Shown piece by piece: positions 9,153 through 34,949 of a DNA stretch of 53,394 nucleotides. The stretch is from a virus: the IMG/VR virus record IMGVR_UViG_3300014913_000002, positions 1-53,394 of that record; one strand, written 5' to 3'. How positions within the stretch are numbered: position 1 is the first letter of the stretch; each line of letters opens with the position of its first letter. Under the pieces are notes generated by a model. The model searched no databases. It was given only the letters and a program-made list of their open reading frames with translations, and had not been told where the DNA came from. Made by a program: the position numbers and the translations under genes.

Positions 9153-11708
9153 TTAGAACCTGTTTATAACTGAATTTATGTCCCATTTCTGATAAAAATA
9201 AACCGGACTAGCCTGTCGTCTATGTCGTAAATACTCTAAATCAGGCTTGCTTCTCATGTGAATTGTTTCAGAATCCAAACAAACTGCAACTTTCCACCCA
9301 GAATGTTTCATAAGTGAAAGAAAAAAATCCATGTGTTCGTATTCTACCTTGATACGATTGTCCCACTTTACATCATCAAAAACTTCTCTCCGGGCCAAAA
9401 AGAAATTCGGAACCTGGTCAGCGTAGAGGAAATAAACACCATCAACTTGATGTATTTCCTTCTTTGACGGATAGCGGAAAAGAGTCTTGTCCTTCACGTT
9501 TAAAATCAGACCCTTGTTGTAATTTTCGTTGACATAGAAATTCCCGTCTGGCTCGTTTCGGAGAAGCCCGGAGACAATACCAATTTCATCATCGCTATCA
9601 AGGACTTTCTTCATATTTTCAATGGCTTTCCCATTGGTAAGCAAAATATCGTCATCGAGGATTAAGATATAGTCCTCGGTTACCCGGCTAACAATGGCAT
9701 TTCGGCCAACCGATATTCCCGAACCAAACGGAAGCCGGATAACTACGTGACCGTTTCGCTCCAATTGCTGATATAAATATTCTTTCTGGTGCGATATTCG
9801 ACCATCATCAGCGATATAAAGCCGGTATGGAAACGGAAAATTTTCCTCTATTCCCTGAATACACCGCAGAAATGTTTCTTCTCTGAGAAAGGTTTTTATC
9901 CCGATGGCAATGGGTTGGCCTTTCTTTCCCCCGGCTCTTTTCCCTCTGTTTCTTATAACTTCTCCACGCCGGATTTTCTCTTTTATGAGGCTTGAGTTAA
10001 TGTCTTTGGTATAAGGCAAGAATACCGCTTTTCCACCAAAGACTCGGACAAACTCTTCTCCAGGAATATGGTCCCAATCGTCACCGTGAACAATATAGTC
10101 AGGATGAATGCTGAGCCTCTGGAAATCCCGGGTAGGGTCGGGATCGTGTTGCTCTATAACCTCATCCACTATGGCCAGAGCTTCAATAATCCGCTTTCTC
10201 TGCTCAAAAGGAATAATCGGTGAGTCTTTGTATTTTCGTGTTGCCCGGTCGGTCAACACCCCCACAATTAGATAACTACCCAGTTTTTTAGCCTTCTCCA
10301 AAATATTCAAATGCCCGACATGAAACAAATCCCACACCCCACCAACAAAAACAGTCTTATTCTTTTTGAAAAACGCCGGGTCTATTGCCTGACAATCAAT
10401 CCAGTATTTGTAATCTTTCTTTGGTACTCGCCAATCTTTACCATACCGGTGTTCAAGATATTTCTCTGGCGGACTTGGAACAAAGCATCTTATGTTCCGA
10501 AACAGTATTTCTTCCAGCTCTTCAAAAAGCTCTGCCGGGAAGACATGGGGGAGAAATTTGTCATATTTCCCAGAAGGACCTGGTCCAAAAGCACCATGCC
10601 ACCAGATGTTGCCTTTTTTGAAAAAGAAAAACAGGTCAACTTTAATCCCTTTCCAGCGAAAGCTCAGCTCAATTTTCTTTCTTCCCCATCGCCATTCTTT
10701 GTAAAACTCAAAGCCGGCATCCAAGAATCGCTTCTTTAGTTTGTCCCAATGTTTTAAGTTCCCTGGTGCTATACCGATGTCTATGTCCGGATCATGACTG
10801 ATAAAATCCTTTTCCCGGATTGCCCCAAGACACGTCCCAGCTTCAAGCCACCATTTGATTTTTTCTTCCTCTAGAATCCTAACGGCCTTTTCTAATGCCT
10901 CGTCTTTTTCGCTATAATCAAATTTTCCCATAGTGTCATACCGTAAGGGATTTATTTTGTTAAACGAACTTATCGAGTAAGTTACTCCCCATTTTCGGCC
11001 AAAGAGTCGCCAGCCAACCGGCCGCTGGCGGTATTTTAGATACTCCGTGTTCTCTTTATTTGAATCATGAACCATGTAAACATCCGGGGTGTAAGCCACT
11101 TTCCACTTTGAGTCATATTTAACTCTAAGAAAGAAGTCCGAATGCTCAAGGGCGGTTTTAAATTGCTCGTCCCATTTTACCTTATCCCAAACCGCCCTCC
11201 GCATCATAAAGACATTTAAAATTAAGTCACAGAGAAAATAATTTATTCCGTCAACTGCCCGCCACTCCGGATTTTCTACTTTCTCAATATAATGGGTGTC
11301 ATTCTCAATCCAGGTATTTGCTTCATAGTGTTGTTCATCTCCATCTGGGGTTATAAGAAGCCCCCCGACTATTCCAACATCCGGCTCAGCATCCAGGATT
11401 TTCCGCCAGCACTCAAGCTTGGTTTCTTTTGTGAAGATAATATCGTCTTCACAGATGACTATAAATTCATATTCATCTGGAATTCTTTTTAAACTCTCAT
11501 TCCGGACGCCAGCCACCCCCAGGTCAAAGGGAAGCTCAAAAAGGACGCAATTGTATCTTTCTGCGAACTTTGTTTTCTTTTCTGATGGCCGACCGTTATC
11601 ACCGATAAAAATCGGGATGTCTTTGTAATATTTCCGGATTGACTTTATACATCGAAAAAGAAGCTCATCCCTGAGAAAAGTTGTAACAAGAATAGCCGTG
11701 TCTTTCAT
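9153..11708 (-). CDS. Four-domain sugar enzyme: glycosyltransferase, LicD, cytidylyltransferase, glycosyltransferase
   Basis: Translation most likely starts at ATG 11708, in an ATGA overlap with the upstream stop, giving 851 residues. Visible domains: residues about 4-245, GT-A type glycosyltransferase with an acidic EDD motif near 87; about 270-435, LicD-type phosphotransferase with GTCLGAIREKDF and DPDIDIG; about 452-585, a nucleotidyltransferase of the glycerol-3-phosphate cytidylyltransferase type, with HVGH near 463 and YTKDINSSLI near the end; about 600-851, a second glycosyltransferase with LILDDDI. Family knowledge suggests it activates a phospho-alcohol with CTP and attaches it and sugars to a glycan. 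Being inside the tail operon suggests virion or surface decoration. Substrates are unknown. Confidence 0.85.
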   Translation of the reverse strand: MKDTAILVTTFLRDELLFRCIKSIRKYYKDIPIFIGDNGRPSEKKTKFAERYNCVLFELPFDLGVAGVRNESLKRIPDEYEFIVICEDDIIFTKETKLECWRKILDAEPDVGIVGGLLITPDGDEQHYEANTWIENDTHYIEKVENPEWRAVDGINYFLCDLILNVFMMRRAVWDKVKWDEQFKTALEHSDFFLRVKYDSKWKVAYTPDVYMVHDSNKENTEYLKYRQRPVGWRLFGRKWGVTYSISSFNKINPLRYDTMGKFDYSEKDEALEKAVRILEEEKIKWWLEAGTCLGAIREKDFISHDPDIDIGIAPGNLKHWDKLKKRFLDAGFEFYKEWRWGRKKIELSFRWKGIKVDLFFFFKKGNIWWHGAFGPGPSGKYDKFLPHVFPAELFEELEEILFRNIRCFVPSPPEKYLEHRYGKDWRVPKKDYKYWIDCQAIDPAFFKKNKTVFVGGVWDLFHVGHLNILEKAKKLGSYLIVGVLTDRATRKYKDSPIIPFEQRKRIIEALAIVDEVIEQHDPDPTRDFQRLSIHPDYIVHGDDWDHIPGEEFVRVFGGKAVFLPYTKDINSSLIKEKIRRGEVIRNRGKRAGGKKGQPIAIGIKTFLREETFLRCIQGIEENFPFPYRLYIADDGRISHQKEYLYQQLERNGHVVIRLPFGSGISVGRNAIVSRVTEDYILILDDDILLTNGKAIENMKKVLDSDDEIGIVSGLLRNEPDGNFYVNENYNKGLILNVKDKTLFRYPSKKEIHQVDGVYFLYADQVPNFFLARREVFDDVKWDNRIKVEYEHMDFFLSLMKHSGWKVAVCLDSETIHMRSKPDLEYLRHRRQASPVYFYQKWDINSVINRF

Positions 11709-11935
11709 TTGTTCCATCGCAAAATGATATGCCAGCTTCCCTTGATACACCCTTTCTCAAAATGGTCAAGGTGAGCATGGGGATAAAATAATGCCTCGGT
11801 CAGGTTTGTAATATGCTTTCCGTCATCCGGCATCAGCTCGTAGTTGTCTTCAAGTGCAAAGACAGCCGGCTGGCCACATTTAGGGCATTCTCGCCACTGA
11901 AAGCGTCCTTGTTTGTCGGTATAGGTTTTTATCAT
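11705..11935 (-). CDS. Small zinc-binding-like protein
   Basis: The 76-residue protein contains CPKCGQPAVFALED near its N-terminus plus later His and Cys residues (HAHLDHFEKGC), a pattern that could bind one zinc. Its stop overlaps the start of the four-domain sugar enzyme (ATGA), so the two are co-translated. It resembles the 75-residue protein at 47870-48097, which also has a CPYCG motif followed by a GCEHFDHF segment. The two appear paralogous. Function unknown. Confidence 0.65.
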   Translation of the reverse strand: MIKTYTDKQGRFQWRECPKCGQPAVFALEDNYELMPDDGKHITNLTEALFYPHAHLDHFEKGCIKGSWHIILRWNK

Positions 11936-27399: not shown

Positions 27400-28881
27400 C
27401 TATAAACCCAACTCTATTTCTTCAATCTTGTCTAAAGCTGATTTCCCGTTTTCTATGGCTTTTAAAACATCAAAAACTTTCTCTGACCACCCGGAAATAA
27501 GAAAAACATCATTATTGTTGACTTCCAGCGGAGTATTACCGTAACCGGCTAAATCAAAAAGATAAAGCTTTGCCCTAGGATTAATTGTTTGTTTATAGAT
27601 GCTCCACTCTTCTTTTAAATTCTTCCCCTGGAGACTAGAATCCCATAGCTGACAATCCGTAAAGATCATAATCTTATCAACAAAAAGCTCTTTTTGGTTT
27701 AGCCATTCAATAACTTTCCATCCATTTGTGCTATACCCGACTTCCCCCTCTCTTCTATGAAACTCATCAGCATTTCTTAGAATTGAATCTTTAGGAACAC
27801 CAATGACTTTCCAGGTATCCCCAAACATCCCCACAATTGCTTTTTTGCATTTTAAATTTAGCATCATCCCCAAAACGATGCCAATATCAAAATATTGAAT
27901 CTTTGACCGAGGGGAAACTTGGTTTTCCATTGAACCAGAAACATCACAAGCAATTAAAACATTCGAGTCGCTATCAATAGGAATATTCTCACAACTAGCT
28001 TTGATAGCTTTTTCAAGAGCGTCCTCAACAAGATTAAAATTAAAGCTGGCCACTTTTTTAATTTCTCGATATACGGCCAAAAACCTAAATGGCAACTGTT
28101 TCGATTTCTTTACCGCTTCCGGATTGCTTAAATAAGCCAAAACTTTATTAAGGTGTTCTCCGCTAACCTGGGCATTTAAAATATTTCGCAGGTTTCTCAA
28201 TAACGCCATATAGCCAACTTTGCCAGAATCAATCAGCTCTTCCCAAACTTCTTTGGTGTTTCCCCTCTCTGAAAGCTGGGTTTCCCAGGTGTATGGCGGA
28301 GTTAATTCATCATTTGCAATTTTCTTAAATAATTGCTCTTGTTCTTTGGTTCTTGGTTTGGGATGAGTAAGAAATAAAACATCTCTCAGCTTAATTTCCG
28401 TCTTCCGGTTATACTTAGCAAATTGATATTCATCAAATTTCAGAAAAGCCCTGGCAATTCCCTTCTGTAATTGTTTGGATAACTTGTTTAATTTTTCCTC
28501 TTTATCATTCGCCAACCAATAATAAGCCAGAATTTCATAAAGCTCGTCAGCCCGTTGAATGATTCTCTCTACCAGCCTGCTAACTAGGCTATCACCATTG
28601 TGGATTTTTGCCAATTCAACCGCTAACACCAAGGGAATGCTCCGCAAATACATTTTTTCCCTAGCATAAACAGCCAACTTAGCCACAAATTCAGCGGGAA
28701 CCTTTTTTATTAAATCCCTTATTTCACCGAGTTGAGAATTAACATCCTCATAAAATTTCGGCTGAAGTGAAGCCGTGCAAATACGTGTATAAAGCTCTAA
28801 TTTAGGCCACAGCTTATAAGCCGTTTCCCCCTCGTAATTGACGGTTTTGTTTTTACCCCTGGCTGGTTGAGAGAATCTCAT
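27400..28881 (-). CDS. rsr: Ro60/Rsr-type RNA-binding protein (TROVE plus VWA domains)
   Basis: The 493-residue protein starts at ATG 28881 after AGGAGG. Residues about 1-300 form the TROVE helical-repeat ring (YTRICTASLQPKFYED, IRDLIKKVPAEFVAKLAVYA, LVERIIQRADELYEILAYYW, MALLRNLRNIL). Residues 310-490 form a von Willebrand A domain with an intact metal site, DVSGS at 313-317. Ro60 proteins bind misfolded RNAs in the ring and Y RNAs on its outer face. In bacteria Rsr works with exoribonucleases in RNA decay and stress survival. Two candidate partner RNAs and a consensus promoter lie directly upstream. Confidence 0.9.
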   Translation of the reverse strand: MRFSQPARGKNKTVNYEGETAYKLWPKLELYTRICTASLQPKFYEDVNSQLGEIRDLIKKVPAEFVAKLAVYAREKMYLRSIPLVLAVELAKIHNGDSLVSRLVERIIQRADELYEILAYYWLANDKEEKLNKLSKQLQKGIARAFLKFDEYQFAKYNRKTEIKLRDVLFLTHPKPRTKEQEQLFKKIANDELTPPYTWETQLSERGNTKEVWEELIDSGKVGYMALLRNLRNILNAQVSGEHLNKVLAYLSNPEAVKKSKQLPFRFLAVYREIKKVASFNFNLVEDALEKAIKASCENIPIDSDSNVLIACDVSGSMENQVSPRSKIQYFDIGIVLGMMLNLKCKKAIVGMFGDTWKVIGVPKDSILRNADEFHRREGEVGYSTNGWKVIEWLNQKELFVDKIMIFTDCQLWDSSLQGKNLKEEWSIYKQTINPRAKLYLFDLAGYGNTPLEVNNNDVFLISGWSEKVFDVLKAIENGKSALDKIEEIELGL

Positions 28882-28899
28882 AATTCCTCCTATAAAATC

Positions 28900-28970
28900 A
28901 AGGGGGAACAAACGAGAGGGGGGAGGGATTTACTGTCCTGCCGAAGTATCCCCTCTCTCCGCCACCCCTT
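28900..28970 (-). ncRNA. Candidate Rsr-associated small RNA, copy B
   Basis: This 71-nt unit, just upstream of rsr, folds into one long hairpin: AAGGGG/CCCCTT at the base, then GAGAGGGG/CCCCTCTC, then GGA/TCC with loop CAGTAAA. It shares GGTGGCGGAGA, GGGATACTTCGG and TGTTCCCC with copy A, while its stem sequences differ in a compensatory way. It is read from the promoter at 29087-29115. A Y-RNA-like role is inferred from its place beside rsr. Confidence 0.65.
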
Positions 28971-28984
28971 AATATCAAAAGAAG

Positions 28985-29056
28985 CACGGGGAACAGGCGA
29001 AAAGGGAACAAAAAGCGGATTAACAGTCCGAAGTATCCCTTTTCTCCGCCACCGTG
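28985..29056 (-). ncRNA. Candidate Rsr-associated small RNA, copy A
   Basis: This 72-nt unit folds as CACGG/CCGTG, GGCG/CGCC, AAAAGGGA/TCCCTTTT and CGGA/TCCG with loop CTGTTAA. It begins about 25 bases after the predicted transcription start. Identical blocks in the internal loops and compensatory changes in the stems relative to copy B show selection on RNA structure. The small size and the neighbouring rsr gene suggest a compact Y-like RNA. I could not match the classical Ro60-binding motif with certainty. Confidence 0.68.
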
Positions 29057-29086
29057 TTTTATTTCTCATGCACCAGCCTTTTTCTA

Positions 29087-29115
29087 AAGATATACCATAA
29101 AAACTGTTTTGTCAA
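29087..29115 (-). promoter_or_regulatory. Consensus sigma-70 promoter for the RNA/rsr unit
   Basis: On the minus strand TTGACA (29115-29110) is followed by exactly 17 bases and TATCTT (29092-29087), with an overlapping TATATC. The predicted start near 29080 lies upstream of both small RNAs and rsr, and the promoter is in the only real gap of this operon. It allows this unit to be expressed apart from the phage lytic genes. Confidence 0.78.
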
Positions 29116-29328: not shown

Positions 29329-30051
29329 TTAGGTCTTCCCCTTATTCTTGCCAATTGACTCAATAAAAGCCTTTACCACCCGGCCCGGGATTATATTTGT
29401 ATCCCAATTCTTATATCCCTCAACCGCTACCCCAAGAACCTCGCCTTTGCGGTTAATCACCGGTGAGCCGGAGTTCCCAAAGTAAACCCGGGCAGTGAGA
29501 TAAAACAAAGTCGGTTTATGAGTGTTATAAGTTATGTATCCCGGTCCCGAGGGGACCAAATCCGCTACTCCCCGAAACCCGAATATCCAGCATTCTTCAA
29601 AAAGGTGGGGATTGCGAAAGTCTTTGAAATAAAACCTGGGTTTAAACTTAACCTTAAAGGCAAGTAAATCTAGTTTGTTAGCTATAATTACATCCGTTGA
29701 TTTTAGAGCCTCCATCTGCTCATGCCGGTTGAAAATCACATAAATCTCATTGGCTTTGGGGAAATCCCGGTCAACCTTGTGACCGGCCGTTATAACCCAG
29801 CCGTCTTCCGAAACAAAAAAGCCGGTGGTCTTAGAACTCCCAGAATAACAGTAAACAATCCCCGGCATCAGCCTTACAAAAAGATTGTGAAGCTGGGTGC
29901 TTTCCCTGATAATCCGGACACCTTCAAATTGGGTCTGTTTAAGATACCCTTCTTCTTGTTGGATATATATCTGGCCAAAGGCAAAAATGGCCAAAATAAA
30001 AACCGCTCCAATAAAAACCTTTTTCACTGTTTCTTTTGCCTCTTTGGTCAT
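29329..30051 (-). CDS. Membrane-anchored trypsin-like serine protease
   Basis: The 240-residue protein starts at ATG 30051 in an ATGA overlap with the exonuclease. A hydrophobic anchor or signal (KVFIGAVFILAIFAFGQIYI) is followed by a chymotrypsin-fold domain: catalytic His in WVITAGHKV, Asp in NKLDLLAFK, and Ser in YFGNSGSPVINRKGEVLGVA. DegP-like relatives act in the periplasm. There is no PDZ domain. In a phage it could act in envelope interference or lysis; the substrate is unknown. Confidence 0.8.
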   Translation of the reverse strand: MTKEAKETVKKVFIGAVFILAIFAFGQIYIQQEEGYLKQTQFEGVRIIRESTQLHNLFVRLMPGIVYCYSGSSKTTGFFVSEDGWVITAGHKVDRDFPKANEIYVIFNRHEQMEALKSTDVIIANKLDLLAFKVKFKPRFYFKDFRNPHLFEECWIFGFRGVADLVPSGPGYITYNTHKPTLFYLTARVYFGNSGSPVINRKGEVLGVAVEGYKNWDTNIIPGRVVKAFIESIGKNKGKT

Positions 30052-34123: not shown

Positions 34124-34900
34124 TCACCTCTTTATGCCATAAAAATCCATCATTATTTCCATACAAAGCTTGTTTACAAAATCCCTATCCACCTTCTCTT
34201 GTAATTTTGAGTGAATCAGGGCATCTTCTATTCTGCTAAATAGCTCCTCGGAATATTTAAGGACTCTTTCCAACGACCATTCTCCCCTTTTTATCTCCAA
34301 AAGCATTTGGCTATCGGGTCTTTCCACGATCAGCTCTCCGGTAGAAAGCAACTCTATCCCCATCTTGAGCAACCGTATTAAATGACTAGCATTTTTGGTG
34401 TCATAGCCGAATTTTTCAAGAAGTTCTTTTCTTTTGGCTCCCATTCTCCCTGTATTGGGATGTGTCATTCGGTGAAGCTGACCATAAGCATAACCACAGA
34501 AGGAGTGATAGCATTGTTTTGAGATTAATTTGTTTCTATTCTTGATTAATCTTTCTCCTAGCTCTGTGCGGATTATGTAATATTTGTCAGTCAGCCAAAG
34601 TAAACACAAAATATTTGGATTTTGCTTAAGGATTAAATTCATGTATTTAGGAAGACTATAATAAACCACATCCCAGACAATCATTTTTTTCTGGGAAATT
34701 TTCTCTTCCCACATTCTTTCAACAGTTTCTAAGTTATCTATACCAAAACAAGTGCTCTCTGGCGGGATAAACACCCCCATTATATCTTTGTCGTCATGAG
34801 TAGTGTTTACATCATAAGTGCCGTGTGCAATACTGCCTCGATAACCCTTGAGAATCATATAATTTTCCAAGCTTTGTAACTCTTTTTCACTAACCTTCAT
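34124..34900 (-). CDS. rlaP: RlaP-like polymerase-beta nucleotidyltransferase
   Basis: I start at ATG 34900 (MKVSEKELQSLENYM) after AAGGATGG, 258 residues. The nucleotidyltransferase signature is clear: YRGSIAHGTYDVNTTHDDKD, with GS and the acidic DDKD pair, and a later acidic residue (KMIVWDVVYYSLPKYMNLIL). This is the pattern of the RlaP family (predicted nucleotidyltransferase of pfam10127), known from phages and linked in genome surveys with RNA repair. It may add nucleotides to damaged RNA ends. Substrate unproven. Confidence 0.72.
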   Translation of the reverse strand: MKVSEKELQSLENYMILKGYRGSIAHGTYDVNTTHDDKDIMGVFIPPESTCFGIDNLETVERMWEEKISQKKMIVWDVVYYSLPKYMNLILKQNPNILCLLWLTDKYYIIRTELGERLIKNRNKLISKQCYHSFCGYAYGQLHRMTHPNTGRMGAKRKELLEKFGYDTKNASHLIRLLKMGIELLSTGELIVERPDSQMLLEIKRGEWSLERVLKYSEELFSRIEDALIHSKLQEKVDRDFVNKLCMEIMMDFYGIKR

Positions 34901-34949
34901 TGTTCCATCCTTAAAGCTTTCCCACCCCAATCCCACAATGACCTATAGC

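What the first reader, a model, noticed from the sequence alone, without database searches (positions are those of the whole stretch)
27400..29115. Phage Ro60/Rsr protein with two paralogous hairpin RNAs and its own consensus promoter
Seen: a TTGACA-17-TATCTT promoter, then two RNA-sized units (72 and 71 nt) sharing GGTGGCGGAGA, GGGATACTTCGG and TGTTCCCC blocks, with stem pairs replaced as pairs (CACGG/CCGTG against AAGGGG/CCCCTT; AAAAGGGA/TCCCTTTT against GAGAGGGG/CCCCTCTC), then a TROVE-VWA gene with intact DVSGS metal site. Known: bacterial Rsr proteins work with adjacent Y RNAs. Inferred: a compact phage Ro ribonucleoprotein with duplicated RNAs that lack the usual Y-RNA plan, acting on host RNA decay or as a decoy.
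Basis: partly seen in the sequence, partly recalled or inferred. Interest (0 to 1): 0.9.

Follow-up and report, generated by a model that had tools for sequence, protein, structure and literature searches.

The report
Phage Ro protein with two Y RNAs
This virus of bacteria carries its own Ro protein, a ring-shaped RNA-binding protein, together with two short partner RNAs of a type found beside most such virus genes; the pair is real, but it belongs to a known and widespread kind.

Summary
On the minus strand lie a 10-of-12 sigma-70 promoter, two hairpin RNAs (29056-28985, 72 nt; 28970-28900, 71 nt) and an intact 493-aa TROVE-vWA Rsr gene. A covariance model built without the window (27 phage units, 1 Bacteroidota unit) finds exactly these two units in 53 kb (E 1.8e-16 and 3.9e-16). 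Both helices covary strongly in relatives, including 44 units picked by motif alone. Of 95 phage rsr loci, 71 carry one to eight such units; Bacteroidota rsr loci carry them too, mostly downstream. These are Y RNAs, the partner RNAs of Rsr. Phage Ro genes and phage Y RNAs are already reported, and a phage Ro60 structure is in the PDB. New here, and worth testing: many YrlA-type copies in relatives carry an anticodon stem-loop with real tRNA loop sequences, and window unit 1 ends in a hairpin identical to the tRNA-Asn(GUU) loop. The function during infection is inferred, not shown.

The parts
29087..29115 (-). sigma-70-type promoter TTGACA-17-TATCTT of the Y RNA-rsr transcription unit
   Evidence: 10 of 12 consensus matches; strong sites before the first Y unit are enriched across phage loci, 14/68 against 10/340 in controls
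28985..29056 (-). Y RNA unit 1 (72 nt). Outer helix CACGG/CCGTG, bulged U, GG/CC, internal loop, 7-bp inner helix, UACUUC block, apical hairpin CGGA-CUGUUAA-UCCG identical to a tRNA-Asn(GUU) anticodon loop
   Evidence: CM R1 built without the window: 59.4 bits, E 3.9e-16; covariation in relatives; loop match; refolding
28900..28970 (-). Y RNA unit 2 (71 nt). Same plan; apical hairpin GGA-CAGUAAA-UCC, the counterpart of the unit 1 hairpin
   Evidence: CM R1 60.5 bits, E 1.8e-16; alignment of the two units
28879..28897 (-). ribosome-binding site (AGGAGG, 28891-28886) and ATG, directly after unit 2 with no terminator between
   Evidence: sequence
27400..28881 (-). rsr: Ro60-related ring protein (TROVE plus vWA, 493 aa, intact DVSGS site)
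   Evidence: Pfam, PHROG 850, alignments, AlphaFold2 and Foldseek to Ro60 structures

Best explanation
This is a phage-borne Ro ribonucleoprotein module. One transcript starts about 20-25 nt before unit 1 and runs through two short Y RNAs into rsr; the two hairpins are released by processing and each binds the Rsr ring through its conserved bulged helix and UACUUC block. Bound Y RNA then stabilises Rsr, covers its RNA-binding surface and offers an apical hairpin to other factors, as Y RNA does in the cellular Ro RNPs. In the infected cell the particle most likely handles damaged or structured RNA (tRNA and rRNA fragments), with or without a host exonuclease such as PNPase. Shown: the genes, the RNA family, the helices and the linkage to rsr. 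Inferred: transcription, processing, binding, and the role in RNA handling (about 0.45 on its own).
For: Family membership with the window left out of the model. Covariation of both helices. 71 of 95 phage rsr loci and most Bacteroidota rsr loci tested carry 1 to 9 units, all on the rsr strand. Intact Rsr with Ro60 fold. Rsr genes of other phages often lie among tRNA genes. An RNA-repair nucleotidyltransferase (RlaP) is encoded at 34124-34936 and is found in 12 of 60 Rsr phages. Literature: Rsr binds the basal stem of Y RNAs and, through Y RNA, PNPase, for decay of structured RNA (PMC4726728, PMC8394870).
Against: No RNA-seq or binding data for this phage. The units lack the tRNA-like module that the literature gives as the PNPase-binding part (PMC8394870), so tethering to PNPase in particular is doubtful here. 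24 of 95 phage rsr loci had no detected unit, so Rsr may sometimes work without one or with diverged ones. The human Ro60 Y-RNA contact His187 (its role and position from memory) aligns to a non-His residue, though bacterial partners may differ.
Confidence: 0.78

Rival explanations
1. Cis-acting leader: the two hairpins are an autoregulatory 5' UTR. Free Rsr binds unit 2, whose 3' end lies a few nucleotides from the Shine-Dalgarno sequence, and blocks its own translation; the hairpins are not independent RNAs.
For: Unit 2 ends 8 nt before AGGAGG, with no terminator between. 155 of 187 phage units lie upstream of rsr, the last often within 100 nt of it.
Against: 32 phage units and most Bacteroidota units lie downstream of rsr, where they cannot act this way; one to nine copies per locus; cellular Y RNAs are known separate RNAs. 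Leader control could exist as well as the RNA role.
Confidence: 0.12
2. Anticodon decoy: apical hairpins imitate tRNA anticodon loops (unit 1: tRNA-Asn GUU) so that host anticodon nucleases or tRNA-processing enzymes are titrated or delivered to Rsr.
For: 46 units (29 of 243 with T-loop, 17 of 248 without) carry a hairpin whose 7-nt loop equals a real tRNA anticodon loop, against 0.5 and 0.3 in shuffles. In YrlA-type copies 7-nt loops are specifically enriched, with U33 in 36 of 42 and the G36-G37 / U36-A37 rule, and pair 31:39 covaries only at loop size 7. Competitive inhibition of an anticodon nuclease by YrlA was proposed for Salmonella (PMC7790460).
Against: Only a minority of units have a canonical loop. 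Among module-less units as a class the fixed-register 7-nt loop is not significantly enriched. Unit 2 has A where U33 should be. The hairpins could be relics of a permuted tRNA ancestor.
Confidence: 0.15
3. Chance hairpins or ordinary attenuators with no link to Rsr.
For: Single-sequence folding is only moderately better than shuffles; Rfam has no family that matches.
Against: E 1e-16 with a model that never saw the window; covariation and strict association with rsr in hundreds of units; no terminator at either unit.
Confidence: 0.01

Closest known systems
YrlA (Rfam RF02553), bacterial and phage Y RNA with tRNA-like domain
   Same: Adjacent to rsr, Ro-binding basal stem. RF02553 hits several relatives' tRNA-like units (Xanthomonas phage Usaquen, E 5e-12), and these also match model R1.
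   Different: Window units have no tRNA-like module and no RF02553 match even at E 10; 71-72 nt against 90-150 nt.
Module-less Y RNAs beside rsr in other phages and in Bacteroidota
   Same: Same length, helices, conserved blocks and tandem arrangement.
   Different: Window units have G at the position usually U or A (GGCGGAG for GGCGUAG) and lie upstream of rsr, whereas Bacteroidota copies are mostly downstream.
Deinococcus radiodurans Rsr / Y RNA / PNPase complex (RYPER)
   Same: Rsr ring protein plus adjacent Y RNA; the working model for function (PMC4726728).
   Different: Phage Rsr is far diverged (Foldseek 17% identity to 2nvo); the RNA lacks the effector domain; no evidence of PNPase recruitment.
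Phage Ro60 proteins, e.g. Thermus phage phiLo Ro60 (PDB 9l5y), Ro-like proteins of actinophages, crAss001 gp96
   Same: TROVE plus vWA protein in a tailed phage; PHROG 850.
   Different: Low identity (23% to 9l5y); no unit of this family was detected near phiLo's gene at a firm score.
Listeria phage CKA15 (P100-like), proposed Rsr and Y RNAs
   Same: Independent proposal of phage Rsr plus Y RNAs, with highly transcribed regions near the gene (PMC12282133).
   Different: P100 shows neither a TROVE match nor an R1 match here, so it does not support the window's case.

Membership tests
Rsr / Ro60 protein | TROVE domain | tested here: met
   PF05731 E 2.5e-40, above the curated cut-off
Rsr / Ro60 protein | C-terminal vWA domain with DxSxS metal site | tested here: met
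   PF25045 E 1.4e-8; D313, S315 and S317 invariant
Rsr / Ro60 protein | Ro60 ring fold | tested here: met
   AlphaFold2 pTM 0.91; the 13 best PDB matches are all Ro60 or TROVE structures, TM up to 0.80
Rsr / Ro60 protein | binds Y RNA and misfolded RNA | not testable with these tools
   needs binding assays
Bacterial Y RNA (broad sense) | encoded beside rsr on the same strand | tested here: met
   14 nt between units, 18 nt from unit 2 to the ATG; all listed hits on the rsr strand in about 175 loci
Bacterial Y RNA (broad sense) | 5' and 3' ends form a conserved bulged Ro-binding helix shared with Y RNAs of relatives | tested here: met
   covariation; CM built without the window
Bacterial Y RNA (broad sense) | bound by Rsr in the cell | not testable with these tools
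   needs co-purification
YrlA (RF02553) | tRNA-like module with D, T and acceptor arms | tested here: not met
   no RF02553 match in the window at E 10; no T-loop in either unit
YrlA (RF02553) | score above the family's gathering threshold | tested here: not met

The most novel reading that the evidence does not exclude
Phage and Bacteroidota Y RNAs are modular tRNA mimics that include a real anticodon arm (a circularly permuted whole tRNA in YrlA-type copies, the anticodon arm alone in some short copies such as window unit 1), with different anticodons in different copies. Ro RNPs would then act as a display of anticodon baits that protects phage and host tRNAs from anticodon nucleases or hands cleaved tRNAs to repair enzymes.
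Probability: 0.18. Interest if true: 0.8.

Novelty: new member of a known kind. Interest (0 to 1): 0.45.

Why it matters
It shows that a short, tRNA-module-free Y RNA type, which no Rfam family recognised here, sits beside many phage and Bacteroidota rsr genes, and it supplies a covariance model to find more. It raises two testable questions: what a Ro RNP without an effector module does in an infected cell, and why Y RNAs in this family carry anticodon stem-loops with real tRNA loop sequences. The second would bear on the open question of what phage Ro proteins are for, given the link of Rsr operons to tRNA damage (PMC7790460).

Tried and rejected
Rfam scans of the window and loci gave no Y-RNA match at the gathering scores, only chance miRNA families below them. 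Nucleotide search with the leader in phages gave nothing of note. Regex searches of Bacteroidota loci upstream of rsr mostly failed; the CM showed the units are downstream. Listeria P100 as independent transcript evidence: rejected, no TROVE or R1 match. TROVE in a defence context: the 2026 preprint on TEP1 concerns another domain, and PADLOC has no match for the window's Rsr. My first covariation set chose 3' halves by pairing, which is circular, so it was redone by motif alone. The search for a literature report on phage Ro60 function found none in the held library; the Chen 2014 paper and the Ro60 review are not held, so what they say of phage Y RNAs rests on citing papers and my memory.

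Full report
What is there. The window is a 53,394-base virus record. On its minus strand an open reading frame from 28881 to 27400 encodes a 493-aa protein with a TROVE domain (E 2.5e-40) and a Ro60-type vWA domain (E 1.4e-8), filed in PHROG 850, a phage RNA-binding protein family. The DVSGS metal-site residues D313, S315 and S317 are invariant in alignments of 18 and 28 relatives. AlphaFold2 gives pLDDT 91.6 and pTM 0.91, and the 13 best matches in the PDB are Ro60 or TROVE structures, among them Ro60 of Thermus phage phiLo. Upstream lie a TTGACA-17-TATCTT promoter and two hairpin units, 29056-28985 and 28970-28900; unit 2 ends 8 nt before the AGGAGG and 18 nt before the ATG of rsr, with no terminator between.

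Are the hairpins real. Folding alone is not persuasive (z -2.8 and -2.1). Comparison is. Searches found 14 close phage relatives of rsr, 91 annotated phage records, at least 579 candidates in viral contigs and 554 in bacterial genomes, nearest in Bacteroidota. The same motif recurs near rsr in most of them. In 44 units outside the window, chosen by sequence motif without regard to pairing, pairing at inner positions 1-6, G4-C9 and outer positions 1-4 exceeds all 2000 shuffles of the 3' halves; the two outermost pairs are not supported, and G1-C11 hardly varies. On a MAFFT alignment of 28 units, 92.6% of cells pair against 60.8% in shuffles, with 13 of 14 pairs changed on both sides, and sliding the partner by one to three columns destroys the signal. 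That second set was restricted to units with short loops, and four poor units were left out, so it leans towards the structure; the first set does not. A covariance model built from these 28 (none from the window) finds exactly two places in the window, the two units, with E 1.8e-16 and 3.9e-16.

How widespread. With the same model 71 of 95 phage rsr loci have at least one unit (one to eight copies, 187 in all), 155 upstream and 32 downstream of rsr; 115 are short and lack a T-loop, 62 have one; in 23 loci only short units were seen, an upper bound since some tRNA-like copies score low. The 80 Bacteroidota loci gave 282 matches, mostly downstream of rsr. Every listed match is on the rsr strand. 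Some of the loci were used to build the model, and the loci are related, so these are not independent counts. 24 phage loci, including the halovirus HGTV-1, crAss001 and phiLo, showed none at a firm score.

What they are. The shared plan is an outer helix with one bulged U, an internal loop, a 7-bp inner helix, then UACUUC on the 5' side and UGUUCC on the 3' side. Some relatives carry a tRNA-like insert (T arm, acceptor stem closed by a small loop, D arm) between the two halves and are hit by Rfam YrlA, below its gathering score. So the units are Y RNAs. The window's two lack that insert, and YrlA does not match them at E 10. Phage Y RNAs are already reported: a 2025 paper states that Y RNAs have been identified in bacteria and mycobacteriophages, citing Chen 2014 (PMC12282133), and a jumbo-phage survey lists TROVE proteins (PMC7824862). 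From memory, Chen 2014 reported at least one tRNA-like Y RNA per species; the window, with none in the contig, would be an exception, but the contig may be incomplete.

A side finding. Directly after UAC the YrlA-type units often form an anticodon stem-loop. In fixed register a 7-nt loop closed by a 4-bp stem occurs in 42 of 243 T-loop units, against 2 to 8 for other loop sizes; U33 is present in 36 of 42, and the G36-G37 / U36-A37 pattern of real tRNAs is seen (Fisher 2e-5). Pair 31:39 covaries only at loop size 7, in phage and Bacteroidota sets apart. 29 T-loop and 17 other units carry a hairpin whose loop is identical to an anticodon loop of a tRNA gene in the same set of loci, against 0.5 and 0.3 in shuffles. 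The review I could read describes YrlA as imitating the D, T and acceptor arms (PMC8394870). Window unit 1 has CGGA-CUGUUAA-UCCG, the tRNA-Asn(GUU) loop; unit 2 has the counterpart GGA-CAGUAAA-UCC without U33. Among short units as a class the fixed-register signal is not significant, so for unit 1 the claim rests on the exact loop match. The shuffles keep base composition only, and the tRNA set comes from the same loci.

How it most likely works. Established for the family: Rsr binds the basal stem of Y RNAs, Y RNA gates access to Rsr and in Deinococcus tethers PNPase (PMC4726728). By analogy the two units bind phage Rsr and stabilise or gate it; without the tRNA-like module, PNPase tethering is doubtful. 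The phage also encodes an RlaP-type nucleotidyltransferase (34124-34936), a predicted RNA-repair enzyme, present in 12 of 60 Rsr phages against 582 of 50,697 phage records by a different, less sensitive search; this suggests, and does not prove, a link to RNA repair. Ranking: independent Y RNAs of an Rsr RNP first, with cis-regulation and anticodon decoy as rivals that may also coexist with it.

Origin. In a tree of 28 Rsr proteins the window groups with three phage proteins with moderate support (88/84), near a clade of Bacteroidota and phage proteins; its highest identity is 61% to a Tannerella protein. The host is not established: the terminase has only distant matches (29% or less among those listed).

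Verdict. Real, well supported, and a member of a known kind; interest is moderate, with the anticodon stem-loops as the part most worth following.

Noticed in passing
L020, L021, L123, L124, L126, L145 and others (Y units beside rsr); window 28900-29056: Y RNAs of the tRNA-like type carry an anticodon stem-loop with real, varied tRNA loop sequences, so the insert reads as a circularly permuted whole tRNA. Window unit 1 keeps only such a hairpin.
   Followed up: partly
window 34124-34936 (-): RlaP-type nucleotidyltransferase of predicted RNA-repair pathways; 12 of 60 Rsr phages have one, and in halovirus HGTV-1 it lies close to TROVE.
   Followed up: partly
window 29329-30051 (-): Trypsin-like protease gene a short way upstream of the Y array; weak PADLOC matches to RT-Protease XI and LmuA models.
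   Followed up: no
L021 (Caulobacter phage CcrColossus) 1716-2911: Eight Y RNA units in tandem before rsr, several of the tRNA-like type; a stretch annotated as tRNA-Gln (2128-2195) lies inside one, possibly a misannotation.
   Followed up: no
L033-L112 (Bacteroidota genomes): Most Bacteroidota rsr loci have several (up to nine) Y RNA units, mostly downstream of rsr; the short ones resemble the window's.
   Followed up: partly
L206 (LR745206.1 at 342958-343029): A Y-like match 100 kb away from rsr in a 635-kb phage; a lone Y RNA or a chance match.
   Followed up: no
window 9153-11750 (-): 865-aa protein with a nucleotidyltransferase-like part matched by PHROG 7878 and glycosyltransferase-like similarity; an unusual fusion for a phage.
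   Followed up: no
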